Assembly (NCBI GenBank): GCA_009694965.1
Contig: SIBV01000003.1
Span: 1 to 37,284 of the forward strand
From: Candidatus Zambryskiibacteriota bacterium
Lineage (GTDB): Bacteria > Patescibacteriota > Minisyncoccia > Phycocordibacterales > DATDWN01
Reading direction: 5' to 3'
DNA length: 37,284 nt
The position numbers and the translations under genes are program-made. Positions 2,901 through 36,518 of this stretch are shown one piece after another (within the stretch, counting starts at the first letter, position 1; each line of letters starts with the position of its first letter). Under the pieces are notes generated by a model. The model saw only the letters and a list, made by a program, of their open reading frames with translations. It had not been told where the DNA came from and did no database searches.

Positions 2901-3012
2901 TACTAATATACGAATGTAACGAATGATACGAATGGTTACGAATAAGAAAAATCAAGAAGCATTCATTCGTAGACATTTGTAGATTAGTATTATTCGTATA
3001 TTCGTATGTTTA
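2896..3012. repeat. TACGAAT-type palindromic repeat, copy 1
   Basis: ATATACGAATGTAACGAATGATACGAATGGTTACGAAT...CATTCGTAGACATTTGTAGATTAGTATTATTCGTATATTCGTATG; ends about 10 nt before the mutM ATG. Confidence 0.85.
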
Positions 3013-3021
3013 ACTAAAACT

Positions 3022-7624: not shown

Positions 7625-7758
7625 TAGATTAAAAAACTTCGTTGAAATCATTTATTTTTTGGAGACTTCGGACCACTGGTGCGAGACTGAGCGAAAATTC
7701 AGTGGAATTTATCGCGTGCTCCAAAAAATAAATGTTGAGAAAGAAGTTTTTTAATCTA
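7625..7758. repeat. 134-bp structured inverted-repeat element overlapping the polA 3' end
   Basis: TAGATTAAAAAACTTC (7625-7640) / GAAGTTTTTTAATCTA (7743-7758) and CATTTATTTTTTGGAG (7649-7664) / CTCCAAAAAATAAATG (7719-7734), both perfect. Confidence 0.85.
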
Positions 7759-10105
7759 TTTCTTCCATCTCTCCCCAATTATTACCTACTGAAGCATTTG
7801 TCTCACACACAATTCCACTAGCCTTTTTAGGATCAACTATTGACTCCATTATTTTTTTTATCTCTGGAACTACTGACTCCACGATGTTGTCTTTGATCTC
7901 ATAAACTAATTCATCGTGAACCTGAAGAAGGAGTCTAACATCCTTTTCTAAATTCTTTCTGGTAACAAACTTATCAACTTCAATCATAGCTAACTTCACA
8001 ATATCTGCTCCAGTCCCTTGGACAGGCGCATTGATTGCCATTCTCTCAGCTGACGCTTTCATAAAAGGTAGTTTCGAATGTATATCAGGAAAGTATCTTC
8101 TTCTTCCGAAAAAAGTTTCGGTATAACCTTTTTGCGTTGTTTCTCTTTTTACATTTTCAAGATACTCCGCGAGCCCAGAAAACTTGTTGAAATAACCGTC
8201 CAGAAACTGCTGTGCCTCTTCACGGCTTGTTCCAATATTTTTCTGTAGGGCTGTGACTCCCATTCCGTACATAACTCCGAAGTTTATAACCTTGGCTTTT
8301 ATTCTCATGGTCTTGGTCACCTCCCTCATAGGGACTCCAAAGACCTCACTTGCAACTGCCGTGTGGACATCTAGACCCTCCTTAAAAATCTCAATCAGCT
8401 TTTTGTCGCCAGAGAGAAAGGCAGCAATTCGGAGCTCCATCTGTGAGTAATCAAATGAAACCAGCTTGTAACCCTTTTCGGCGACAAATGACTTTCGAAT
8501 TTCTCTGCCTAAATCAGTCTTGTTCGGAATGTTTTGTAAGTTCGGATTTTGACTCGCCATTCTACCTGTGGCAGAACCTGCTTGTAGAAAATCGGAGTGT
8601 AAGCGATTTTCCTTATCCACTTGTGTTGGAATAGTATCAATATAGGTTCCCAGTAATTTCGACAATTCTCTATATTCCAAAACAAATGAAGCGATAGGAT
8701 GTTCCTCACGAAGCTTTTCTAATTCTGACTCTTTGGTGGAAAATCCCCCACTCGCTGTTTTCTTCTGATTCTTTGGTTTCAATCCCATCTTCACAAAAAG
8801 CATTTCACCTAGTTGTTTTGGTGAACTAATATTAAATTCCCCCCCGACAATCTTCCATATTTTTTTCTCAAGAGACGTTAGTTCCTTGTGGTACTCTTTG
8901 GACAACACTTTTAGTCGCTCAACATCTACTTTTATGCCAACCTCATTCATTTTCTTTGTGATTGGCAAAAGGGGCTTTTCTATTTCTTCATACACAAAGG
9001 AAATGCCTTGGTCTTTTATTGTTTTCTCTAAATTGATCCGGGCTTCCGCCAATGTGTTTGTTCGAGTATATGACAAAATATCATTCAAATCTGGAGTGGT
9101 TTTGTTCGAATCAACTACCCAAAGCATAAGTCCCACCTCTCTTATCTCTTCTGGGTCCTCCTCTTTCAATATAGATTCCGGAACTTCTAGCGAAAGAACT
9201 TCAGCGATTTTCGCACCAAGTTGTCTGAATTCAAACTCAATGAACAGCTCCTGAACCTTCTTCATGTCTATATCATCTCTCCACACCTTTTCGGGAATAG
9301 TGAAATGTATTGGAGCATCTCTCCTAATAGTTGCGAGCATTTTGGAGAAACTTGCTTCCTCCTCACCAGCTTTAAGAAGTTCCACTATTCTTTTTTTGAT
9401 ACCCGCTTTTTCAAAAGCCTTTTCGTCCTTTTTCAGTTTCTTATATATGTCTTCAATCGAACCGAAGTTAACGATGAGGTCTGTTGCGGTTTTCTCTCCA
9501 ATTCCTGCAATGCCTATTATGTTATCCGACGGATCTCCTCGTAGTCCTTTGTAATCCGGTAATAGTTCAGGACCAAAACCAAATCTCTCCTTTACAGCAT
9601 CCTCATTATAAATAATCGTATCTTTTATGCCTTTTTTCAGAGTATAAACCTGAACCTTATCACCCACAATTAGCTGCATCGTATCCATGTCGCCTGACGC
9701 AATAAAAATATTGAGATCCTTCTCGTCCTTCATTTTTTCAACGATAGTTCCCAACATATCGTCTGCCTCAAATCCTCTGGACGAATACATAGGAATATCC
9801 ATCGCCTTGAAAACATCTTTGGATCTCTCTAGTTGCAAAACTAATGCATCATCTGTTTTCTTTCTTCCGTCTTTGTATCCATCATAGACATCATGTCGAA
9901 ATGTTCCTCCTTCCAAGTCGTAACAAGCGACGATATAATCTGGCTTCAAATCTTTTACGAGTTTTATAAGTAGTGTGCAAAGTCCATACAAAGCTCCTGT
10001 TGGTTCACCCTTGCTTGATTCGAACTCCGGCAACGCATGATAAGCCCTATGCAAAATAGCATGTACATCAAGTAATGCGAGGATTTTATGTTTTGATTTA
10101 GGCAT
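7751..10105 (-). CDS. polA: DNA polymerase I (5' nuclease plus polymerase, reduced middle domain)
   Basis: 5' nuclease (LLDVHAILHRAYHALP..GFEADDMLGT..GDPSDNIIGIAGIGEKTA) and family A polymerase motifs (DYSQMELRIAA, RIKAKVINFGVMYGMG, QVHDELVYE). Confidence 0.96.
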   Translation of the reverse strand: MPKSKHKILALLDVHAILHRAYHALPEFESSKGEPTGALYGLCTLLIKLVKDLKPDYIVACYDLEGGTFRHDVYDGYKDGRKKTDDALVLQLERSKDVFKAMDIPMYSSRGFEADDMLGTIVEKMKDEKDLNIFIASGDMDTMQLIVGDKVQVYTLKKGIKDTIIYNEDAVKERFGFGPELLPDYKGLRGDPSDNIIGIAGIGEKTATDLIVNFGSIEDIYKKLKKDEKAFEKAGIKKRIVELLKAGEEEASFSKMLATIRRDAPIHFTIPEKVWRDDIDMKKVQELFIEFEFRQLGAKIAEVLSLEVPESILKEEDPEEIREVGLMLWVVDSNKTTPDLNDILSYTRTNTLAEARINLEKTIKDQGISFVYEEIEKPLLPITKKMNEVGIKVDVERLKVLSKEYHKELTSLEKKIWKIVGGEFNISSPKQLGEMLFVKMGLKPKNQKKTASGGFSTKESELEKLREEHPIASFVLEYRELSKLLGTYIDTIPTQVDKENRLHSDFLQAGSATGRMASQNPNLQNIPNKTDLGREIRKSFVAEKGYKLVSFDYSQMELRIAAFLSGDKKLIEIFKEGLDVHTAVASEVFGVPMREVTKTMRIKAKVINFGVMYGMGVTALQKNIGTSREEAQQFLDGYFNKFSGLAEYLENVKRETTQKGYTETFFGRRRYFPDIHSKLPFMKASAERMAINAPVQGTGADIVKLAMIEVDKFVTRKNLEKDVRLLLQVHDELVYEIKDNIVESVVPEIKKIMESIVDPKKASGIVCETNASVGNNWGEMEEID

Positions 10106-10112
10106 GTGAAAA

Positions 10113-10220
10113 AATTTTCAGTTTTCAATTCTCAATTTTCATTGAATTTTCAATGAATTAATTTTCAAAATTGGAAATTGCAACATTGATTGAAAATTGC
10201 AAAATTGATAATTGAAAATT
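10113..10220. repeat. TTTTCAATT-type palindromic element, copy upstream of polA
   Basis: AATTTTCAGTTTTCAATTCTCAATTTTCATTGAATTTTCAATG...CAACATTGATTGAAAATTGCAAAATTGATAATTGAAAATT. Confidence 0.85.
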
Positions 10221-10239
10221 ACCTCCATTATACCACCCC

Positions 10240-17149: not shown

Positions 17150-19027
17150 TTAATTTCTCAGCATTTTCAAAAACACGTCCTGTGGAATGTCGACAGTCCC
17201 TCGGCCTCTTGCCTTCATCCTCTTCTTTCCCTTCTTTTGCTTTTCACGAAGTTTCATTTTTCGAGTGATGTCCCCTCCATACATATGCTGAGTCACATCT
17301 TTACTGAAAGCTGAAACTGTGCGACTGGAAATAATTCTACCCAACGCTTTTGCCTGAACCTTCATCACAAACATTTGGCGAGGAAGGAGCGCATGAAGTT
17401 TCTCAACCATCATTTCCGCTTCTGTTTCGACAATCCTTCTAGATACAACTCTAGAGAACGCGGGCAATACCTCATCAGCAACTAGAATATCCATTCTCAC
17501 AACATTAGCATCTCGCATTCCTTCTATCTCATAAGAAATAGAAGCGAAACCACTCGATGCACTTTTCAATTTATCAAAAAAGTTTCGCATAAGTTCACGA
17601 AGTGGCATTTTCAAAAATAGTCTCGTTCTATCATCTCCAAAGTTTTCTGAGTCCCCTAGTTCTGCCTCATGTTCATAAAGAAGTGGCATTAAATTAACTA
17701 GAAACTTTACTGGCGTAATAATAATACAGTTTACCCACGGCTCTCGTATTTCCGAAAGTAATCCTTCATCAGGAAAATGTGCAGGCGAATATATAGTCTC
17801 CATTTGTCCCGCCTTTGGTCCGCTTTTATAAACTACTTCATAAGTAATAGTCGGCATAGTCACCACTAGATCTAGATTGAATTCTCGATGAAGTCTTTCT
17901 GAAATAATTTCTAAGTGAAGCATCCCTAGGAACCCGCAACGAAACCCTCTTCCCAAAACTCCTGATGATTCTTCTTCATATGTATAAGAAGAATCAGACA
18001 ATTTCAGCTTTCCTAAGGCCTGCTTAAGACTCACAAAATCATCCTGACTCTCTGGGTAGATTGACGCCCACACGACAGGACGAGGAAGCATATAACCCTC
18101 AAGCGGCACACTGTTGTCACCAACAGTACCAACAGTGTCTCCAACAGAGGCGATGCCTGGCTCCTTTATTCCTGTTACAATATAACCAATTTCTCCCGCA
18201 CTGAGAGTTTCCACTGGAACTTCGCCTGGCGAGAATATGCCTACTTCGATTGAGTTAAATGTTTCTTTTGCAATTTTGAAAACAAGCGGAGTATTTCGAG
18301 AAACTTTTCCTTCCATCACGCGCACGAAAACAATAACTCCTCTGTGAGTAGAATATTTGAAATCAAAAATTAGAGACTTGAAGCTGTTGCCTTCTACCAT
18401 CCTTGGAGCGGGAACTTTCTTGATAACTTCACGAAGTAAATCATCAACACCTTCACCAGTTTTTCCTGATGTGTATAAAATATCTTCTGGACTACATTCA
18501 AGTAATTTAATCACTTCCATTTTTACCTCCTCTACTCGAGCTAAAGGAGAATCCACTTTCGATAAAACTGGAATGATGGTGAGTCCTGCTTCCCTCGCCA
18601 TTCCAAGGGTAGTCAACGTTTGAGCCTGAACACCTTGGGTTGAATCAACCAAAAGAATCGAGCCTTCTACCGCTTTTAAGGCTCGAGAAACTTCATATGA
18701 AAAATCTATATGCCCCGGTGTATCTATCAAATTCAGAATGTATTCTGAATTTGAATTTTCAATTTTTAATTTAGAATTTTCATTGGAAACTGAATCATTG
18801 ATTGGAAATTGAGAATTGGAAATTGGAAATTTTGGTCGATAGACCATCCTCACAGGTTGCATCTTGATAGTAATCCCTCTCTCTCGTTCAAGTTCCATTG
18901 AGTCAAGGACCTGTTCCTGCATTTTCCGTTTTTCTATAGTGCCGGTTAGCTCAAGCATTCTGTCAGCTAAAGTAGATTTACCATGGTCTATGTGGGCGAT
19001 GATACTAAAGTTTCGAATGTTTTCCAT
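17150..19027 (-). CDS. lepA: elongation factor 4 (LepA) with a repeat-derived insertion
   Basis: MENIRNFSIIAHIDHGKSTLADRMLE...LNLIDTPGHIDFSYEVSRALKAVEG; ~29 extra aa KFPISNSQFPINDSVSNENSKLKIENSNS before EYILNLIDTPGH. Confidence 0.96.
   Translation of the reverse strand: MENIRNFSIIAHIDHGKSTLADRMLELTGTIEKRKMQEQVLDSMELERERGITIKMQPVRMVYRPKFPISNSQFPINDSVSNENSKLKIENSNSEYILNLIDTPGHIDFSYEVSRALKAVEGSILLVDSTQGVQAQTLTTLGMAREAGLTIIPVLSKVDSPLARVEEVKMEVIKLLECSPEDILYTSGKTGEGVDDLLREVIKKVPAPRMVEGNSFKSLIFDFKYSTHRGVIVFVRVMEGKVSRNTPLVFKIAKETFNSIEVGIFSPGEVPVETLSAGEIGYIVTGIKEPGIASVGDTVGTVGDNSVPLEGYMLPRPVVWASIYPESQDDFVSLKQALGKLKLSDSSYTYEEESSGVLGRGFRCGFLGMLHLEIISERLHREFNLDLVVTMPTITYEVVYKSGPKAGQMETIYSPAHFPDEGLLSEIREPWVNCIIITPVKFLVNLMPLLYEHEAELGDSENFGDDRTRLFLKMPLRELMRNFFDKLKSASSGFASISYEIEGMRDANVVRMDILVADEVLPAFSRVVSRRIVETEAEMMVEKLHALLPRQMFVMKVQAKALGRIISSRTVSAFSKDVTQHMYGGDITRKMKLREKQKKGKKRMKARGRGTVDIPQDVFLKMLRN
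18753..18832. repeat. TTTTCAATT-type palindromic element inside lepA
   Basis: GAATTTTCAATTTTTAATTTAGAATTTTCATTGGAAACTGAATCATTGATTGGAAATTGAGAATTGGAAATTGGAAATTTTGG. Confidence 0.85.
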
Positions 19028-23282: not shown

Positions 23283-23407
23283 TGTTTTTAAATTATTTAG
23301 TTTTATATCCTTATATTATATAGTTATTATCTTACTGATTCAATGTTGACCCCGTTAGAGTTTTACAATTTGAAATAATTTATTTTTATGGTATAATAGA
23401 ATTGTTA

Positions 23408-23896
23408 TGTTGGATAAGTGCTCTTTAGCTATTTATAGCTAAAGGGAGGAAAGTCCGAACATCAAGTTTAGATTTATCTAAACAAGAGTAGCGGGTAACG
23501 CCCGTCGGGAGTAATCCTAGAGGTGCGAGCAGTGACGTCCGAGGCGAAAGCCAGAGAATTCCGCTGCGTTAAAGCAGATGGAATAATTTTATGGAAACAT
23601 AAAAGTGAAACGGCAAAATCCTTACTTTGATGCAAGGCCGTACCCGACTGCACCTCACTGGGTTCAGTGCAGAATTTTCAATTTTCAATTTCTAATTTTC
23701 AAACAATTCTCAATGTATCAAAGGGGAATTAATTCATTGAAAACTGAAAATTAGAAATTAGAAATTCTGTCCGAGCAAAGCGAGGTGCAGTTGGGGGTGC
23801 CGCTTGATCACCGTGGTAACACGAGCGACAGATAAATACTTATCGTCGAGCACCAGTTCTGGTGCTCGATACAGAATTCGGCTTATAGACACAACA
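23408..23896 (+). ncRNA. rnpB: RNase P RNA carrying an inserted palindromic element
   Basis: CR-I GGGAGGAAAGTCCGAACA, ACGGCAAAATCC..GATGCAAGGCC, GCTTGA, 3' ACAGAATTCGGCTTATAGAC; TATAAT at 23392-23397. Confidence 0.93.
23672..23766. repeat. TTTTCAATT-type palindromic element inside rnpB
   Basis: GAATTTTCAATTTTCAATTTCTAATTTTCA...TGAAAACTGAAAATTAGAAATTAGAAATTC. Confidence 0.9.
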
Positions 23897-23901
23897 AAAA
23901 T

Positions 23902-24024: not shown

Positions 24025-24657
24025 TTAATCAAAAACTAGGTCCTTTAACTCAGCCTTGTCTTTCAAAATCTCATAACTTGATTTGGTGAAATCTTTAAAC
24101 TCAGCAATGTCTTTAAATTGACTGAGTATGATTTCATTATCACATATATTATTAGAATTAATCCCAATGAATTCCGGGTAACTACTCCATTTGTAATTTT
24201 CTATATTTTTCACAATTCCTCCTATTTTAGGATTTTGGTGAAGATAACAAGTTAACCAATTTAAATACTCATTATCCCCTATCGTTATCTGCTTGAATTG
24301 ATCTTGAAATATATGACCGACCTTATCATACTTTCTATTAAAATATTTTGAATGTATTGAAAACAAAGGATTTCTCGGTTGATGGGAATCCTTTGTTTTC
24401 AATACATTCAAAATCTCGGCTGGACGAGATGTTGTTGTTTCATAATGATTTTGAGTTTCCTGTGCTTTTTCATCTGGAGTAGTTCTGTATGACAAAACTG
24501 ATTCCTCTAAAACAAACCAGGAACGATCAATCCTTCTTGATGTAATTTTATCTTGTCTGCAAAGCTGTCCAATGTAGTCTCTAGAGTAGCCGGTAATTCT
24601 ACTGGCCTCTTTTATTGAAATATATTTCTTCCCTTCAAAGTAAGCGTCAGAATTCAT
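24025..24657 (-). CDS. chimera: N-terminal excisionase/MerR-like HTH fused to the C-terminal part of a RAYT/Y1 transposase lacking the HUH motif
   Basis: ATG at 24657 (MNSDAYFEGKKYISIKEASRITGYSRDYIGQLCRQDKITSRRIDRSWFVLEE) followed by YFNRKYDKVGHIFQDQFKQITIGDNEYLNWLTCYLHQNPKIGGIVKNIENYKWSSYPEF; no HxH motif. Confidence 0.7.
   Translation of the reverse strand: MNSDAYFEGKKYISIKEASRITGYSRDYIGQLCRQDKITSRRIDRSWFVLEESVLSYRTTPDEKAQETQNHYETTTSRPAEILNVLKTKDSHQPRNPLFSIHSKYFNRKYDKVGHIFQDQFKQITIGDNEYLNWLTCYLHQNPKIGGIVKNIENYKWSSYPEFIGINSNNICDNEIILSQFKDIAEFKDFTKSSYEILKDKAELKDLVFD
24345..24414. repeat. 28-bp perfect inverted repeat with 14-nt spacer inside the chimeric gene
   Basis: ATTTTGAATGTATTGAAAACAAAGGATT (24345-24372) / AATCCTTTGTTTTCAATACATTCAAAAT (24387-24414). 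Confidence 0.93.
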
Positions 24658-24679
24658 TAGTAAAATTATAGCGTTCAAA

Positions 24680-24710
24680 TGTGGATAAATTGTGAATAAT
24701 ATGGGGATAA
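24680..24710 (-). promoter_or_regulatory. three DnaA-box-like 9-mers at 11-bp spacing
   Basis: TGTGGATAA (24680), TGTGAATAA (24691), TGGGGATAA (24702), directly upstream of the TATAAT of the chimeric gene. Confidence 0.5.
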
Positions 24711-24960
24711 CAAAAGATATTTCAGAAGAGTTCACCCTTCTGAAATATCAATTTAGAATTTTTAAATTGGATACAAATTATATATAGGATTTGATACAGA
24801 GCCTATAAATTTTCTCTTTACTAATAGTATGTCTTGTCTATAACTTTTTCTAAATTTTAAAGTTTAAATTCTGAAAGTTATCAACAGGTAACATTGTTAA
24901 TCTAATATAAACTTTGTATTATTAAGTCATAGCTTTATCAATCTTTATTAATGTACTACT

Positions 24961-25281: not shown

Positions 25282-25306
25282 TATGGCAAGGTTAAACCTT
25301 GCCATA
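25282..25306. repeat. REP-like hairpin, left flank of RAYT
   Basis: TATGGCAAGG-TTAAA-CCTTGCCATA. Confidence 0.85.
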
Positions 25307-25333
25307 TGAAGAAAGAAAAACTATAATATACAG

Positions 25334-26011
25334 ATGACACGTTCAACCACAATCTCAATTGATGAATTTTATCACGTTTATAATAGGGGTACTGAGAAAA
25401 GAAAAATATTTAACACACGGTATGATTACGAACGTTTTATAGCTCTTCTCTATCTGTGCAACTCTACTGAACCAATACGCATAAGAAGTAAGTACTTAAA
25501 TGAAATGCTTGATACTAAGCGCGGTAAAAAACTAGTAGACATTGGTGCGTACTGTCTCATGCCAAATCACTTTCATCTTTTGTTATACGAATGTGTTGAG
25601 GATGGCACCAGTCTGTTTATGCAGAAACTAACAACAGCCTACACGATGTATTTCAATAAGAAAAACGATAGGGTTGGAAGTTTGTTTCAAGGTACATTCA
25701 AAGCTGAGCATCTAGACGATGATGAATATTTAAAATATATTTTTGCATACATTCACTTGAATCCTGTTAAACTTATTGAACCTAAATGGAGGGAGGATGG
25801 GATCAAAAACCGCACTGGAGCAAAAAACTTTTTGAAAAATTATTCATATTCAAGTTACTCAGAATTTACCGGAGTCGACAGAAAAGAAAAAGTCATCCTC
25901 TCCCCTACTGCCTTTCCAAAGTATTTTGAAAAGGTGGATGACTTTCAAAAAATGATTAACTTCTGGATCGAGTTCAAGAATGAATACCTTCTGCCAGAGA
26001 AAGAAATCTAA
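25334..26011 (+). mobile_element. Y1/HUH transposase of the RAYT (REP-associated tyrosine transposase, IS200-like) family
   Basis: DEFYHVYNRGTEKRKIF..., HUH motif MPNHFHLLL, AYIHLNPVK Tyr region, C-terminal YSSYSEFTG; flanked by REP-like hairpins. Confidence 0.93.
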
Positions 26012-26019
26012 AAACTAGA

Positions 26020-26048
26020 AGTATGGCGAGGTTTAACCTCGCCATACT
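26020..26048. repeat. REP-like hairpin, right flank of RAYT
   Basis: AGTATGGCGAGG-TTTAA-CCTCGCCATACT. Confidence 0.85.
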
Positions 26049-26114: not shown

Positions 26115-27665
26115 CTATTTTAATAACTCAAGAGTAATTTTTCGGATCAGTTCTGGATTGCCAGCGCCTTTCATCGCCTTCATACCATGGCCTACAAAAA
26201 AATGAAGGAGTGATTCTTTGCCGGCTTTGTAGCCCGCAACACTCTCGGGGTTAGTGGTGATTATTTCTTGCATAACTGCTCTAAGCTCTTCTGAATCATT
26301 TTTCTGAATCAATCCTTTCTCTTTTGCAATCACTTCTGGACTTCCGCCGACTACATACATTATTTTTAAAACATCCTTTGCTCCACGTGATGACAAGTCG
26401 CCACTTTTAATCATAATTATTAAACTTACAAAATTTTCAACTTCAATAAGTCCCAAAGAAAACTCATTTCCAGCAACTTTCGAAAGTCCGATAATATCTG
26501 ATGTAATGTAATTTGATGCAGACTGAACAATTTCTGAGCCTTGAGCTATTAATTGTTTGGAAACTGTTTCAAAGAAATTACACGCTTCCCTATTGTTTAT
26601 GTATGTCTCGATATCCGAACTCTTTAGACCAAAATCTTTTGAGAACCTTTCTCTCTTTTGTTGAGGTAGTTCTGGTATTGATTTTTTTATTGTTTCATAA
26701 TCAAATTCTGGAATTTCTGAAATAAATATCTTTGGTAAATCAGGTTCAGGGAAATATCTGTAGTCATGAGCGGACTCTTTTGCTCTTTGACTGAAAGTCA
26801 CACTTTTGTTTTCATCCCACCCGCGGGTTTCCTGGATCACCTTTTCTCCCTTTTCCAAAATTGATTTTTGTCTTTCGAATTCAAAATCAATAGCCTTTCC
26901 AGCAGCTCGGAAGGAGTTTATATTTTTTACCTCCACTTTCGTCCCTAATTGGTCATTGGACATTGGAACTTGGGATTTATTGACGCTTATATTCACCTCA
27001 ACTCTCATTTCCCCTTTTTCCATGTTGGCATCAGATACTCCTAAATATTGAAGAAGTAGTTGAAACTCTCTGGCAAAATTCATAGCATCAACACTTGAGT
27101 GAATTACAGGTTCTGTAACTAATTCCATCAAAGGCACCCCTGCTCTGTTATAGTCAACTAAAGAATTTTCAGTTCTCAATTTTGCAATTTTCATTGAATT
27201 TTCAATGTTTGAATTTTCATTGGAAATTGACTCATTGAGATTTGATTGGAAATTGGAAATTGGAAATTGTGAATTAGCCCCACTGTCATGTATCGATCTT
27301 GCAGTATCTTCTTCAAGATGGATGCGAGTTAAATCCACTCCGTCAATAGAGCCCCCAGAAACTAGAGGGTATTTATACTGACTTATCTGATACCCTTTTG
27401 GGATATCAGGATAGAAATAGTTCTTTCTATCGAACTCAGTAAAGTTGGCGAGCTTGCTCCCTACAGCCACCCCCACAGACAAAACCTTTTTAATGGCCTC
27501 CTTGTTTATAACAGGGAGCGTCCCAGGGTGACCCATACATATTGGACAGATATTTGCGTTTGGAGACTTTTCTTCTGGATCGTTTTTACATCCACAAAAC
27601 ATTTTACTCTTTGTTTTGAGTTCAGCGTGAATCTCGAGACCAACTGTTATCTTATAATCTGACAT
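26115..27665 (-). CDS. gatB: aspartyl/glutamyl-tRNA amidotransferase subunit B with a repeat-derived insertion
   Basis: YKITVGLEIHAELKTKSKMFCGCKND...NICPICMGHPGTLPVIN...; ~38 extra aa ANSQFPISNFQSNLNESISNENSNIENSMKIAKLRTEN between SIHDSG and SLVDYNRAGVPLMELVTEP. Confidence 0.96.
   Translation of the reverse strand: MSDYKITVGLEIHAELKTKSKMFCGCKNDPEEKSPNANICPICMGHPGTLPVINKEAIKKVLSVGVAVGSKLANFTEFDRKNYFYPDIPKGYQISQYKYPLVSGGSIDGVDLTRIHLEEDTARSIHDSGANSQFPISNFQSNLNESISNENSNIENSMKIAKLRTENSLVDYNRAGVPLMELVTEPVIHSSVDAMNFAREFQLLLQYLGVSDANMEKGEMRVEVNISVNKSQVPMSNDQLGTKVEVKNINSFRAAGKAIDFEFERQKSILEKGEKVIQETRGWDENKSVTFSQRAKESAHDYRYFPEPDLPKIFISEIPEFDYETIKKSIPELPQQKRERFSKDFGLKSSDIETYINNREACNFFETVSKQLIAQGSEIVQSASNYITSDIIGLSKVAGNEFSLGLIEVENFVSLIIMIKSGDLSSRGAKDVLKIMYVVGGSPEVIAKEKGLIQKNDSEELRAVMQEIITTNPESVAGYKAGKESLLHFFVGHGMKAMKGAGNPELIRKITLELLK
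27163..27275. repeat. TTTTCAATT-type palindromic element inside gatB
   Basis: GAATTTTCAGTTCTCAATTTTGCAATTTTCATTGAATTTTCAATG...ATTGGAAATTGGAAATTGGAAATTGTGAATT. Confidence 0.85.
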
Positions 27666-27677
27666 ATGTAGATAATT

Positions 27678-28643
27678 TTACAGTTTTTCTAAAATCTTTA
27701 CCAATGAATCGCTTAAATTCTTTACTGATGCATCATCGATAATAGATAGGGACAAAACGTTTTCGTGGGTTTTTTGGAATAGTTTAATGTGTGATTTTAG
27801 AGTCTTTTCGTCAATCAGATCAATTTTTGTTAGCAAGACAACTTCGGGTTTTTTCAAAAGTTCTTTATCATAAAGTGAAAGTTCCTTTCGGATAGTTTTG
27901 TAAACAGCCAAAGGTTTTTCATTTTCACTAGAAATACAGTGAAGAAGCATTTTGGTTCTAGCAATGTGTCGAAGAAACTTGTGCCCCAACCCCTTTCCCT
28001 CGTGAGCCCCTTCTATAAGTCCTGGTATATCTGCAATAACGAAACCATACAAATCTCCTAGGTTTGGTGAAAGTGTAGTGAATTGATAACTTCCAACTTT
28101 TGCTTTGGCCCGAGTCAAGGAATTCAGTAAACTTGATTTTCCGGCATTTGGTAGACCGACAAGTCCCAAGTCAACGACTAGTTTTAATTCAACAAAAAAC
28201 TCTCCGCCCTGTCCAAGCTTTCCTCTGGTAGACTCTTGAGGCTTAACGTTTGTTGGTCCTTTGAAGTGGTCGTTTCCATACCCTCCCCATCCACCCTTCA
28301 AAAAGAATATCGTCTCTTCATTCAAGATCTCAACTTCTTCAAGAGTTTCTGTATTTTTTACAACTGTGCCAATAGGCAACTCAATGGTTATATCTTTACC
28401 AGATCTTCCGTGCATACATTTACCTCTCCCTTTTTGACCATCTTCAGCTTTAAAATCTTTTATGAACTTATACTCGGCCAGTCTTCCAATATCGTGAACG
28501 CCTTTGAGATAGACACTTCCGCCCTTACCACCGTCTCCTCCCCCAGGACCTGCATGGTCAATACCCTTCTCATGCTTCCATGAAACTATGCCGTCCCCTC
28601 CGTTTCCAGCCCATATATTGAGTGTTAATTCATCTATAAACAT
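27678..28643 (-). CDS. obgE: Obg/CgtA family GTPase
   Basis: MFIDELTLNIWAGNGGDGIVSWKHEKGIDHAGPGGGDGGKGGSVYL...GLVGLPNAGKSSLLNSLTRAKAKVGSYQFTTLSPNLG...ADIPGLIEGAHEGKGLGHKFLRH. Confidence 0.97.
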   Translation of the reverse strand: MFIDELTLNIWAGNGGDGIVSWKHEKGIDHAGPGGGDGGKGGSVYLKGVHDIGRLAEYKFIKDFKAEDGQKGRGKCMHGRSGKDITIELPIGTVVKNTETLEEVEILNEETIFFLKGGWGGYGNDHFKGPTNVKPQESTRGKLGQGGEFFVELKLVVDLGLVGLPNAGKSSLLNSLTRAKAKVGSYQFTTLSPNLGDLYGFVIADIPGLIEGAHEGKGLGHKFLRHIARTKMLLHCISSENEKPLAVYKTIRKELSLYDKELLKKPEVVLLTKIDLIDEKTLKSHIKLFQKTHENVLSLSIIDDASVKNLSDSLVKILEKL

Positions 28644-28661
28644 GAGCTCATGTTATCACAT

Positions 28662-28749
28662 AATTTTCAATTTACAATTCTCAATTTTCAATGAATTTTC
28701 AATGAATTAAAGGGTTTTTTGGAAATTGTAAAATTGAAAATTGAAAATT
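28662..28749. repeat. TTTTCAATT-type palindromic element upstream of obgE
   Basis: AATTTTCAATTTACAATTCTCAATTTTCAATGAATTTTCAATG...GGAAATTGTAAAATTGAAAATTGAAAATT. Confidence 0.85.
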
Positions 28750-28839
28750 TTTTTTTCAATTTTAGTGAAAAAATAGTTATCCCCAACATAGAAATTTGCA
28801 AAAAAATTACAATCTGGTACAAATATGGAAATTCCAATA

Positions 28840-28952
28840 CGAATATGCGAATGAAACGAATAATGCGAATGTATACGAATAAATACAATCCGTTTTCTAT
28901 CATTCGTAGCCATTCGTAGCTTGGTATTATTCGTTAATTCGTATATTTAATT
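28840..28952. repeat. TACGAAT-type palindromic repeat, copy 2
   Basis: ATACGAATATGCGAATGAAACGAATAATGCGAATGTATACGAAT...CATTCGTAGCCATTCGTAGCTTGGTATTATTCGTTAATTCGTATATTTAATT. Confidence 0.88.
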
Positions 28953-28960
28953 AAAAAATT

Positions 28961-32626: not shown

Positions 32627-32690
32627 TTTTCAATTTTTAAACAGATTCAAATGCTTTAGTTTAGAAATTAGAAATTGAAAATTAGAAATT
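32624..32690. repeat. TTTTCAATT-type palindromic element, short copy
   Basis: AATTTTCAATTTTTAAACAG...GTTTAGAAATTAGAAATTGAAAATTAGAAATT. Confidence 0.75.
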
Positions 32691-32692
32691 GT

Positions 32693-32947
32693 TTATCTAA
32701 TATCTACTATCTTAAGTCCTGTTAACTGTGTTATTTCCTCTATAATTCTTGTTTTAAATATAAATAGCTTATTTTTTACTCCAGATGAAGCCTTCACCAA
32801 CAAAACACAATCCTTTAACTCAACATCCTCCGGACTTATTTTGATTCCTGTATTTTTATCTATGATTTCTAAAATCTGTCTTCGGTGTAAATCTATAGAA
32901 TTGAGTTTTTTAGTAAACCTTTCTAGATATTTTTGAATATTAAACAT
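32693..32947 (-). CDS. 84-aa protein, possible DciA/DUF721-like domain
   Basis: ISPEDVELKDCVLLVKASSGVKNKLFIFKTRIIEEITQLTGLKIVDIR resembles the small KH-like DciA core; location next to dnaN-dnaA. Confidence 0.45.
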   Translation of the reverse strand: MFNIQKYLERFTKKLNSIDLHRRQILEIIDKNTGIKISPEDVELKDCVLLVKASSGVKNKLFIFKTRIIEEITQLTGLKIVDIR

Positions 32948-32949
32948 AG

Positions 32950-33066
32950 TAGATAAACATACTAATTAACGAATAGAGAAATAATATGAATGACTACGAA
33001 TTAGAGAATTAAAAATTTTATTCGTTGCCATTCGTATATTTGTATTGTTCGCATATTCGTATATTT
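32950..33066. repeat. TACGAAT-type palindromic repeat, copy 3
   Basis: ACATACTAATTAACGAATAGAGAAATAATATGAATGACTACGAATT...TTATTCGTTGCCATTCGTATATTTGTATTGTTCGCATATTCGTATATTTATT. Confidence 0.82.
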
Positions 33067-33069
33067 ATT

Positions 33070-34170
33070 TTATTTGTTCATTGGCATAACAAGGTATAGA
33101 AACGACTTATCATTAACCCCTCTTATCACCATCGGTTTATTGTTGTCAGAAAAACTTAAAGATATACTATCTGCATCAATCGCTTGAAAACAGTCTATAA
33201 TGTACTTATGATTAAAGCTTATTATTATTTCCTCTCCCTTCACTACAGCTTCTAGGTTGTTTACATTTTCCCCCACATCCATATTTTTGGTTGTAATTTT
33301 GAAGTTCTTGTCTTTTGGCGAAACATGGAAAATAACCTGACTAAACTTATCTGCAAAAATATTGGAAATACGGAGTCCGCTTATTAAATCTTGTTTCAAA
33401 ACTACAACCTCTGTTTTTATATCCTTAGGAATAATTTGCTTATAATCAGGAAAAACACCATCAATAACCCTGGATGTTATATATAAATCATTGTGAGAAA
33501 ATGCTATTTGGTTGTCATTTAGAAAAACCTCAACATCGTCTTTTATATCATCAATCGTTCTAATTATTTCTCCAACATTTTTAAAAGGTATTAATATTTG
33601 ATTGAATTCTTTGTGTTTTTTGGCTCCTATTCTTTTTTCAGCAAGTCTAAATGAGTCAGTGGCAGCAAAAACCACATCATCTTCATCTGAAGCAACTAAA
33701 ATACTAGCTAAAACTGGACGGATAGTAGAAACAGAGGAACTATATAAAACCGCTTTAAAGCCTTTTATTAAACCAGCAACATTAAATGTAAAAGGTTTAT
33801 TACTCACTACTTTTGGGATATTTGGAAAATCATCGACTGGAAAAGCTTTAATGAGTGATTGTGAGTGTTTTGTAGAAACTTTTAGGTTTCCTTCAACTAC
33901 TTCTAAATTTATATTTTTATCATTGGTTATGTTTGAAATAAAATTATATAAAACAGACCCAGAAACAGCGATGCTTCCAGGTTTAATAACTTTTACTGGA
34001 ATACTTATTTCTATTCCTAAATCTAAATTTGTAGCTTTTATAATAAGAGTTGAATTTTTTGCCTCAAGTAAAATACAATTTAATATTGGCAGTGTTATGT
34101 TTTTACCTGTAATTCTTTCTGCTTTACCTATCGCATAAGCCAACTTATCTTTGATACATTCTATATTCAT
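33070..34170 (-). CDS. dnaN: DNA polymerase III sliding clamp (beta)
   Basis: MNIECIKDKLAYAIGKAERITGKNITLPILNCILLEAKNSTLIIKATNLDLGIEISI...; C-terminal YLVMPMNK. Confidence 0.96.
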   Translation of the reverse strand: MNIECIKDKLAYAIGKAERITGKNITLPILNCILLEAKNSTLIIKATNLDLGIEISIPVKVIKPGSIAVSGSVLYNFISNITNDKNINLEVVEGNLKVSTKHSQSLIKAFPVDDFPNIPKVVSNKPFTFNVAGLIKGFKAVLYSSSVSTIRPVLASILVASDEDDVVFAATDSFRLAEKRIGAKKHKEFNQILIPFKNVGEIIRTIDDIKDDVEVFLNDNQIAFSHNDLYITSRVIDGVFPDYKQIIPKDIKTEVVVLKQDLISGLRISNIFADKFSQVIFHVSPKDKNFKITTKNMDVGENVNNLEAVVKGEEIIISFNHKYIIDCFQAIDADSISLSFSDNNKPMVIRGVNDKSFLYLVMPMNK

Positions 34171-35817: not shown

Positions 35818-35914
35818 CATACGAATGATGCGAATGTATGCGAATAATACAACCAAATCATAATTCTATTCGTAGTCATTCGTAGATTCGCATTATTCGT
35901 TAATTCGTATATTA
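35818..35914. repeat. TACGAAT-type palindromic repeat, copy 4
   Basis: ACATACGAATGATGCGAATGTATGCGAATAATAC...ATTCGTAGTCATTCGTAGATTCGCATTATTCGTTAATTCGTATATTAAATT. Confidence 0.88.
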
Positions 35915-35920
35915 AATTCA

Positions 35921-36058
35921 ATGTCTCAAACATACCAACCAAAAAAGAGAAAGAGAGCGAAGTCACACGGTTTTCTAGCTAGAAGTAAGTCAAAAACAGG
36001 CAGAAACACTATTTTAAGAAGAAGAAGAAAGGGTCGGGCTAAACTGAGTACAGTCTAA
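35921..36058 (+). CDS. rpmH: 50S ribosomal protein L34
   Basis: Manual translation [45 protein letters not shown] (45 aa, below the ORF-track length). Confidence 0.96.
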
Positions 36059-36155
36059 ACAGTTTGTAAAGTCCATAAAGTTTGTAAAGTCCATAAAGTA
36101 GACTAGTTTCAACTTTATAACTTTACAAACTTTTAACTTTATAAACTAATATCTC

Positions 36156-36518
36156 ATGTTACCTAAAAAAAATAGGATATCTAGAAGAGAAATCGAGGTA
36201 ATTTTGAAAAACGGATCAAGGTACAACTCCCCTAATCTTTTGATGTATTTGTACAAAAACGGAAAAGAGAAAAAACTGCAAAACAGTCAGTTTTCATTCT
36301 CTATTTCAAAGAAAATTTCTAAAAATGCTGTTGATAGGAATAAACAGAGAAGGAGGGGTTACTCTGTAATAAACAAGCATATAGATAAAATAAAAGATGG
36401 GTATTATTGCATGTTTGTTTTTAAAAAGGGGTCAGGGTCAATAAAATACGAAAACCTAGAAAAGGAAATATTGGAGTTACTTTCTGAATCAAATGTGTTT
36501 TACCCCCACACCAAATAA
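36156..36518 (+). CDS. rnpA: ribonuclease P protein component
   Basis: MLPKKNRISRREIEVILKNGSRYNSPNLLMYLYKN...FSFSISKKISKNAVDRNKQRRRGYSVINKH; located between rpmH and yidC. Confidence 0.93.
   Translation: MLPKKNRISRREIEVILKNGSRYNSPNLLMYLYKNGKEKKLQNSQFSFSISKKISKNAVDRNKQRRRGYSVINKHIDKIKDGYYCMFVFKKGSGSIKYENLEKEILELLSESNVFYPHTK

What the first reader, a model, noticed from the sequence alone, without database searches (positions are those of the whole stretch)
23672..23766. Palindromic element inserted within RNase P RNA
Seen: GAATTTTCAATTTTCAATTTCTAATTTTCA..TGAAAACTGAAAATTAGAAATTAGAAATTC interrupts the rnpB arm bounded by CTGCACCTC..GAGGTGCAG, after the conserved GATGCAAGGCC and before GCTTGA. 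By comparison with bacterial type A RNase P RNA this is the P13/P14 area. The insert self-pairs, so the core fold could be retained. The same element therefore colonises protein genes, a catalytic RNA and spacers.
Basis: partly seen in the sequence, partly recalled or inferred. Interest (0 to 1): 0.85.

Follow-up and report, generated by a model that had tools for sequence, protein, structure and literature searches.

The report
Palindromic mobile repeat inside RNase P RNA
In a tiny uncultured Patescibacterium, a dispersed, self-pairing DNA repeat has lodged in an outer arm of the essential RNA enzyme that processes tRNAs, and related bacteria carry kindred repeats in other arms of that RNA and in their ribosomal RNAs, each wrapped in a GC-rich stem that seems to keep the insert apart from the working RNA core.

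Summary
Window 23402-23901 is a class A RNase P RNA gene (RF00010, 105 bits). An AT-rich imperfect palindrome (23673-23766) sits in the P15-P16(-P17) arm, not P13/P14. It is related to about 13-20 places in the 527-kb genome, including lepA, gatB and spacers (best in-window match 62.6 bits; dinucleotide-shuffled controls never exceed 40.1). Most same-genus relatives show the empty state, an 18-36-nt capped P16 hairpin.

The inserted unit is larger than reported (about 23648-23790): a GC-rich collar wraps the core. Collared cores also occur in P16 of two relatives, between P5 and P7 in a third (sister to one of those), and in relatives' 16S (h6, h39) and 23S (H25, H45, others). Flank pairing separates 15 RNA-gene copies (-18.5 to -38.2 kcal/mol) from 47 others (-1.5 to -16.0), though any insertion into a helix gives part of this. 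In G008, rnpB carries the palindrome that flanks that genome's own RAYT transposase gene.

Best reading: a REPIN/MITE-like non-autonomous element tolerated as an extra peripheral hairpin. Whether RNase III cuts it out is untestable here. It is a new variant of known kinds (REPIN, Rickettsia palindromic elements, 23S intervening sequences, STRR in cyanobacterial rnpB).

The parts
23402..23901 (+). rnpB, RNase P RNA, bacterial class A, with the insert
   Evidence: RF00010 105.4 bits, full model; conserved blocks GAGGAAAGUCCG, AAACGGCAAAAUCC, AUGCAAGGCC, GCUUGA, CAGAUAAAU, ACAGAAUUCGGCUUA present
23648..23672 (+). 5' GC-rich collar CTGCACCTCACTGGGTTCAGTGCAG
   Evidence: resembles collars in the same arm of G002 and G009 and in another arm of G010; absent from short-arm relatives; pairs with the 3' collar
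23673..23766 (+). AT-rich core, imperfect palindrome of 7-nt units (AATTTTC type)
   Evidence: 76% identical over 91 nt to 28659-28749; 45 BLAST pieces genome-wide; covariance model hit E 5e-8 (its own sequence was in the model)
23767..23790 (+). 3' GC-rich collar CTGTCCGAGCAAAGCGAGGTGCAG
   Evidence: complementary to the 5' collar; flank duplex -38.2 kcal/mol
10111..10223 (.). copy of the same core family, just outside the polA-like ORF 7751-10105
18752..18834 (.). copy inside lepA, in frame
   Evidence: the relatives compared have a short turn here, except G008 (a short different segment) and G002 (a large foreign insert); G005 was not aligned
27162..27271 (.). copy inside gatB, in frame
   Evidence: shared with L049, absent from L050, L052-L056 and L058
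28659..28751 (.). copy in the spacer next to the obgE-like ORF 27678-28643
32659..32701 (.). partial copy
25334..26011 (+). RAYT-like Y1 transposase with HUH (HFH) and Tyr motifs; possible source of mobility, but its own flanking palindrome is a different one
   Evidence: PF01797 33.2 bits; flanking palindromes
25284..25308 (.). palindrome upstream of the RAYT gene (TATGGCAAGGTTAAACCTTGCCATA)
26020..26048 (.). palindrome downstream of the RAYT gene (AGTATGGCGAGGTTTAACCTCGCCATACT)

Best explanation
A non-autonomous, REPIN/MITE-like palindromic element has inserted into the apical end of P16 of the RNase P RNA gene. It consists of an AT-rich 7-nt-periodic core closed by two inverted GC-rich collar segments. 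SHOWN: it is an insertion relative to most congeners; its core belongs to a dispersed family of this genome; kindred collared elements occur at other arms of rnpB and at several 16S/23S helices in congeners; in RNA genes the flanks pair with each other. INFERRED: the collar stem and self-folding let the insert project as an independent hairpin, so the catalytic core can fold and the insert is tolerated; the element was moved in trans by a Y1/RAYT-type transposase, past or present; the transcript is kept whole (preferred), or nicked at the long duplex by RNase III without loss of function (main rival).
For: Empty sites: P16 is 18-24 nt in G001, G003, G004, G010 and G011. Dispersal: 45 pieces in the host genome; best of 100 shuffled windows 35.6 bits against 62.6 observed. 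Mobility: the sister species G009 and G010 (LepA 93% identical, clade support 100/99) carry nearly the same collar (37/38 and 23/25 nt), in P16 in one and between P5 and P7 in the other, each with a short hairpin at the other's site. Breadth: cores in 16S h6 and h39 and 23S H25 and H45 of congeners; one collar, CACATTGAGTACAATGT, occurs at three separate RNA sites of G002. RNA-gene collars: flank duplex -18.5 to -38.2 kcal/mol in 15 RNA-gene copies against -1.5 to -16.0 in 47 others, Mann-Whitney p 4e-9. RAYT link: rnpB of G008 carries TTGCTAACACTCGGTGTTAGCAA (P12 region), differing only in the loop from the palindromes on both sides of its RAYT gene 4.4 kb away, plus a related hairpin between P5 and P7. 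Genomes with at least two RAYTs have 9-41 G-type core pieces, those with at most one have 0-2 (6 against 6). rnpB is longer where RAYTs are present (31 against 18 genomes, p 0.001; outside the genus p 0.002).
Against: No RAYT found here is flanked by the collar seen in G000, G002, G009 and G010, and the window's own RAYT has a different palindrome, so the mover of this particular element is unproven. No clear target-site duplication was found. The RAYT correlations are made on related MAGs and may reflect general genome permissiveness. Part of the flank-pairing contrast is expected, because any insertion into an RNA helix inherits host pairing; the shared collars are what goes beyond that. No RNA data, so retention and activity are inferred. 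Collars and core could have arrived in two steps.
Confidence: 0.72

Rival explanations
1. The insert is an intervening sequence in the strict sense: RNase III cuts the long duplex and the insert is removed, leaving a fragmented but working RNase P RNA, as with 23S IVS elements.
For: Kindred inserts sit in 23S H25 and H45, which with H9 are the commonest IVS sites (PMC4990558; PMC2801512); H25 placement confirmed by model alignment. The arm forms long duplexes. An rnc-like start lies next to a G-type core in G008 (MDFNEFEKNTGLNF..., read by eye).
Against: The rnpB duplex in G000 is interrupted by an 8-nt bulge and smaller defects, so it is a less ideal substrate. No RNA data. Excision from RNase P RNA is not known to me.
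Confidence: 0.25
2. Collared elements in RNA genes are a distinct class that specifically targets hairpin loops of structured RNA genes, as DNA hairpins in single-stranded form or through RNA.
For: Whole-genome pattern search for one collar found it only in rnpB and 16S, apart from one 3-mismatch hit in G005; the collar contrast between RNA-gene and other copies has no overlap; identical collars recur at three RNA sites in G002.
Against: Selection could give the same picture: only inserts with a stable stem survive in an essential RNA. Whole-genome collar search was limited to one collar type and one genus.
Confidence: 0.2
3. The arm arose in place by slippage of 7-nt units and template switching (quasi-palindrome expansion), without transposition.
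For: The cores are 7-nt periodic, and the unit differs between genomes, as expected of local expansion.
Against: Same-family cores occur at many unrelated loci of one genome with the same asymmetric centre (around CAATGAATTTTCAATGAATTAA). Shared collars at different RNA sites and different arms need movement or copying.
Confidence: 0.08
4. It is simply the lineage's normal P16/P17 arm, long and variable, with chance AT-rich resemblance to other repeats.
For: rnpB peripheral arms vary widely in this order (P16 from 18 to 173 nt).
Against: Most congeners have short arms; similarity exceeds all shuffles; the collar lies in different arms in sister species.
Confidence: 0.04

Closest known systems
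REPINs / REP elements with RAYT transposases (PMC3116915; PMC2817692)
   Same: Two inverted palindromic ends with a less conserved spacer, able to form one long hairpin or two small ones; RAYT genes present and flanked by their own palindromes; non-autonomous and dispersed.
   Different: REPINs are described as extragenic; here elements lie in rnpB, 16S, 23S and in frame in lepA and gatB. The matching RAYT for this collar was not found, and the core is AT-rich and 7-nt periodic.
Rickettsia palindromic elements (RPE; PMC3767692)
   Same: About 100-nt palindromes dispersed in a reduced genome and inserted in frame in conserved protein genes.
   Different: Unrelated lineage; no sequence comparison was made; the GC-rich collars and the insertions in catalytic and ribosomal RNA are the feature here.
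23S rRNA intervening sequences (PMC4990558, PMC2801512)
   Same: Self-pairing inserts at 23S H25 and H45, sporadic between relatives.
   Different: Here the insert family also occupies rnpB, 16S and protein genes; removal by RNase III was not tested; no ORF inside.
STRR repeats within rnpB of heterocyst-forming cyanobacteria (Vioque 1997, known here from its title in the reference list of PMC2858038)
   Same: Short repeated units present inside the RNase P RNA gene.
   Different: The paper itself was not held, so the site and unit were not compared; cyanobacteria; no collars known to me.
Insertions in CPR 16S/23S rRNA genes (reviewed in PMC9698310)
   Same: Same phylum; rRNA genes with insertions.
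   Different: The review stresses introns and ORFs in insertions over 500 bp; these are palindromes of about 140-170 nt, and rnpB is included.

Membership tests
Bacterial RNase P RNA, class A (host gene) | Covariance model match above the curated cut-off over the full model | tested here: met
   105.4 bits against 100, 1-367
REPIN (RAYT-mobilised REP doublet) | Two inverted palindromic ends with a spacer, folding as a long hairpin | tested here: met
REPIN (RAYT-mobilised REP doublet) | Genome encodes RAYT | tested here: met
   4 PF01797 matches in G000, one in the window
REPIN (RAYT-mobilised REP doublet) | Ends match the palindrome flanking the cognate RAYT | tested here: not met
   Two G000 RAYTs have GAGGTTTAACCTC-type flanking palindromes, not the rnpB collar; of the other two, one gave no flank result and one was not examined. 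Met for a different palindrome in G008 rnpB
REPIN (RAYT-mobilised REP doublet) | Extragenic location, high copy number | tested here: not met
   Collared copies lie in RNA genes; core copies about 13-20
Rickettsia palindromic element | Palindrome of about 100-150 nt inserted in frame in conserved genes | tested here: met
   lepA, gatB
Rickettsia palindromic element | Sequence homology to a described RPE family | not tested
   no RPE sequence compared
23S-type intervening sequence (IVS) | Removal from the transcript by RNase III | not testable with these tools
   no RNA data
23S-type intervening sequence (IVS) | Location in 23S H9/H25/H45 | tested here: not met
   this copy is in rnpB; congener copies are at H25 and H45
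Group I intron | Match to RF00028 | tested here: not met
   no match in the window; one in the 23S of G002 is separate
STRR in cyanobacterial rnpB | Short tandem repeat of the cyanobacterial type | not tested
   the paper is not held

The most novel reading that the evidence does not exclude
Patescibacteria harbour a class of palindromic mobile elements adapted to structured RNA genes: a GC-rich collar that can fold as one stem or two hairpins carries a replaceable AT-rich core, and the collar directs insertion into, or makes it survivable within, hairpins of RNase P RNA, 16S and 23S rRNA.
Probability: 0.35. Interest if true: 0.8.

Novelty: new variant of a known kind. Interest (0 to 1): 0.62.

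Why it matters
Mobile elements usually avoid essential structured RNAs. Here kindred palindromic repeats occupy protein genes, spacers, a ribozyme and both large rRNAs in one genus, with a sister-species pair that differs in which rnpB arm is occupied. That gives natural experiments on which arms of RNase P RNA and rRNA tolerate insertion, ties RAYT/REP biology to RNA genes, and warns that detection of rRNA and rnpB genes by primers or models can fail in Patescibacteria because of such inserts.

Tried and rejected
P13/P14 as the location: rejected by the model alignment. Normal lineage stem: rejected by short arms in congeners. Chance similarity of AT-rich DNA: rejected by shuffles of both window and query. 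Direct duplication of a 22-nt target hairpin as origin of the collars: considered by eye and set aside, because the 3' collar fits the reverse complement of the 5' collar better than the collar itself (exact in the G008 H45 copy). The window RAYT as cognate mover of this element: not supported, its flanking palindrome is different. The long P9-region insert of G008 rnpB as a dispersed repeat: one copy only in that genome. RNAalifold on 11 core copies gave only 13 pairs, 2 with double changes, so covariation in the core is weak and is not used as evidence. Tree of LepA: only the G009/G010 pair is supported, so whether P16 collars in G000, G002 and G009 are one insertion or several is open. Paper searches for RPE in rnpB, RAYT in Patescibacteria, and palindromes in rnpB gave nothing on point.

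Full report
What was checked. The window is contig C21 of a 527-kb, 29-contig genome, 87% complete. Its nearest named relatives by GatB are Ca. Zambryskibacteria and other Patescibacteria MAGs. RF00010 matches 23402-23901 over the whole model at 105.4 bits. The conserved blocks are intact by eye.

The insert. The AT-rich core 23673-23766 is an imperfect palindrome of 7-nt units. The arm folds at -66.1 kcal/mol, z -7.3. Its relatives in the window are at 10111-10223, 18752-18834 (lepA), 27162-27271 (gatB), 28659-28751 and a part at 32659-32701. Shuffling the window 100 times gave at most 35.6 bits, and shuffling the query 200 times at most 40.1, against 62.6 observed. BLAST over the genome gave 45 pieces; a profile search of the fetched loci gave 15 places, 13 of them long enough to align. 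A covariance model gave 22 hits in this genome, 20 in G002 and 13 in G010; most elements are hit on both strands because they are palindromic, so elements number about half of that.

Empty sites. In congeners P16 is 20 nt (G001, G003, G004), 18 nt (G011), 24 nt (G010) or 36 nt (G005). In lepA, the congeners whose sequence could be aligned have a short turn where this genome has the in-frame insert, except that G008 has a short different segment and G002 a large foreign domain at the same turn; G005 was not recovered. In gatB the insert is shared with L049; L050, L052-L056 and L058 have nothing comparable there, L051 and L059 have inserts at another position, and L057 has a different short stretch at this one.

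The unit is larger than the core. In G002 and G009 the same arm holds a core of another type between GC-rich segments (GCATCTCAC...GTGAGATGCAG and CTGCAC...GAGGTGC), and G010 has almost the same collar, not in P16 but between P5 and P7. G009 and G010 are sisters (LepA 93%, support 100/99), with collars matching at 37/38 and 23/25 positions. G000 has the matching segments 23648-23672 and 23767-23790. A pattern search for the collar in 12 congeners found rnpB and the 16S gene of G010, plus one 3-mismatch hit in G005.

Ribosomal RNAs. Searching the G-type core and the rRNA loci showed cores in 16S h6 (G010, G002) and h39 (G010, G002), 23S H25 (G002, G008, G010), H45 (G008) and other 23S sites (G002, G005, G010). 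Helix names are by sequence context; the H25 site was checked on the model alignment. In G002 one collar, CACATTGAGTACAATGT, recurs at 16S h6 and two 23S sites. For 62 distinct core copies I measured the duplex between 30-nt flanks: 15 RNA-gene copies -18.5 to -38.2, 47 others -1.5 to -16.0 kcal/mol, no overlap. The RNA-gene label came from reading the flanks, and one copy (L282, 16S h6 of G002) was recognised as 16S only after its strong flank pairing drew attention to it, although its sequence then confirmed it. Insertion into a helix alone gives some flank pairing, so the recurrent collars are the stronger evidence.

Across the order. rnpB was surveyed in 48 genomes (43 parsed); P16 ranges from 18 nt to 173 nt where anchored, and long palindromic arms with genome-specific units recur (G012, G030, G039, G060). 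Whether those units are dispersed in their own genomes was not tested.

RAYT. PF01797 matches 4 times in this genome, once in the window at 25334-26011, flanked by GCRAGGTTWAACCTYGC palindromes. Many RAYT genes examined in the genus have such paired palindromes. In G008 the palindrome flanking the RAYT at C6:10031 recurs in rnpB, 4.4 kb away, with the same stem and a different loop, and a degenerate relative sits in a second arm. This suggests that a RAYT-type palindrome can enter rnpB. It does not show that RAYT moved the G000 insert. Core copy number and RAYT number go together in the genus (6 against 6 genomes), and rnpB length and RAYT presence in the order (p about 0.001-0.002). The cut-offs in these comparisons were chosen after seeing the data, and relatedness of genomes is only partly controlled.

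Mechanism. I think a REPIN/MITE-like element jumped into the apical end of P16 and survives because collar and core fold on themselves. Retention in the RNA is my preferred reading; cleavage by RNase III is the main rival, supported by the placement of kindred inserts at known IVS sites. Neither can be settled without RNA.

Known and new. REPINs (PMC3116915), RPEs (PMC3767692), 23S IVSs (PMC4990558), CPR rRNA insertions (PMC9698310) and STRR repeats in cyanobacterial rnpB (title in PMC2858038) each cover part of this. I found no description of such palindromes across protein genes, rnpB, 16S and 23S in Patescibacteria, but the paper library holds open-licence papers only, so absence there is weak evidence.

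Noticed in passing
window 2919-3018, 28856-28955, 32977-33073, 35821-35921: A third heptamer-type palindromic family (ATTCGTA / TACGAAT units), four copies in spacers.
   Followed up: partly
window 36064-36147: A G-type core copy lies directly upstream of an ORF that reads as the RNase P protein gene rnpA (36156-36518), so both RNase P subunit genes have palindromic repeats at or in them.
   Followed up: partly
window 24025-24735: ORF with an HTH_17-like N-terminus and a C-terminus resembling the C-terminal half of a RAYT, without the HUH part; looks like a chimera or remnant.
   Followed up: no
L293 (G002 lepA): LepA of G002 carries a large foreign domain (GxxExxY-like by eye) at the same turn where G000 has the palindromic insert.
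   Followed up: no
L241:4556-4791 (G002 23S): Group I intron (RF00028, 68.6 bits) close to palindromic inserts in the same 23S gene.
   Followed up: no
L238 (G000 23S): The 23S match is about 600 nt longer than the model span and holds no core of either type at the threshold used; the extra sequence is unidentified.
   Followed up: no
L026 (G008 rnpB): Related hairpins (CCAGCCCC / GGGGCTGG and a variant) appear in three arms of rnpB (P9 region, P16, P19 region).
   Followed up: partly
window 23793-23801 and congeners: The GGU motif next to P15 that binds tRNA 3' CCA (from general knowledge) is present here and in G009 but reads AGU in several congeners.
   Followed up: no
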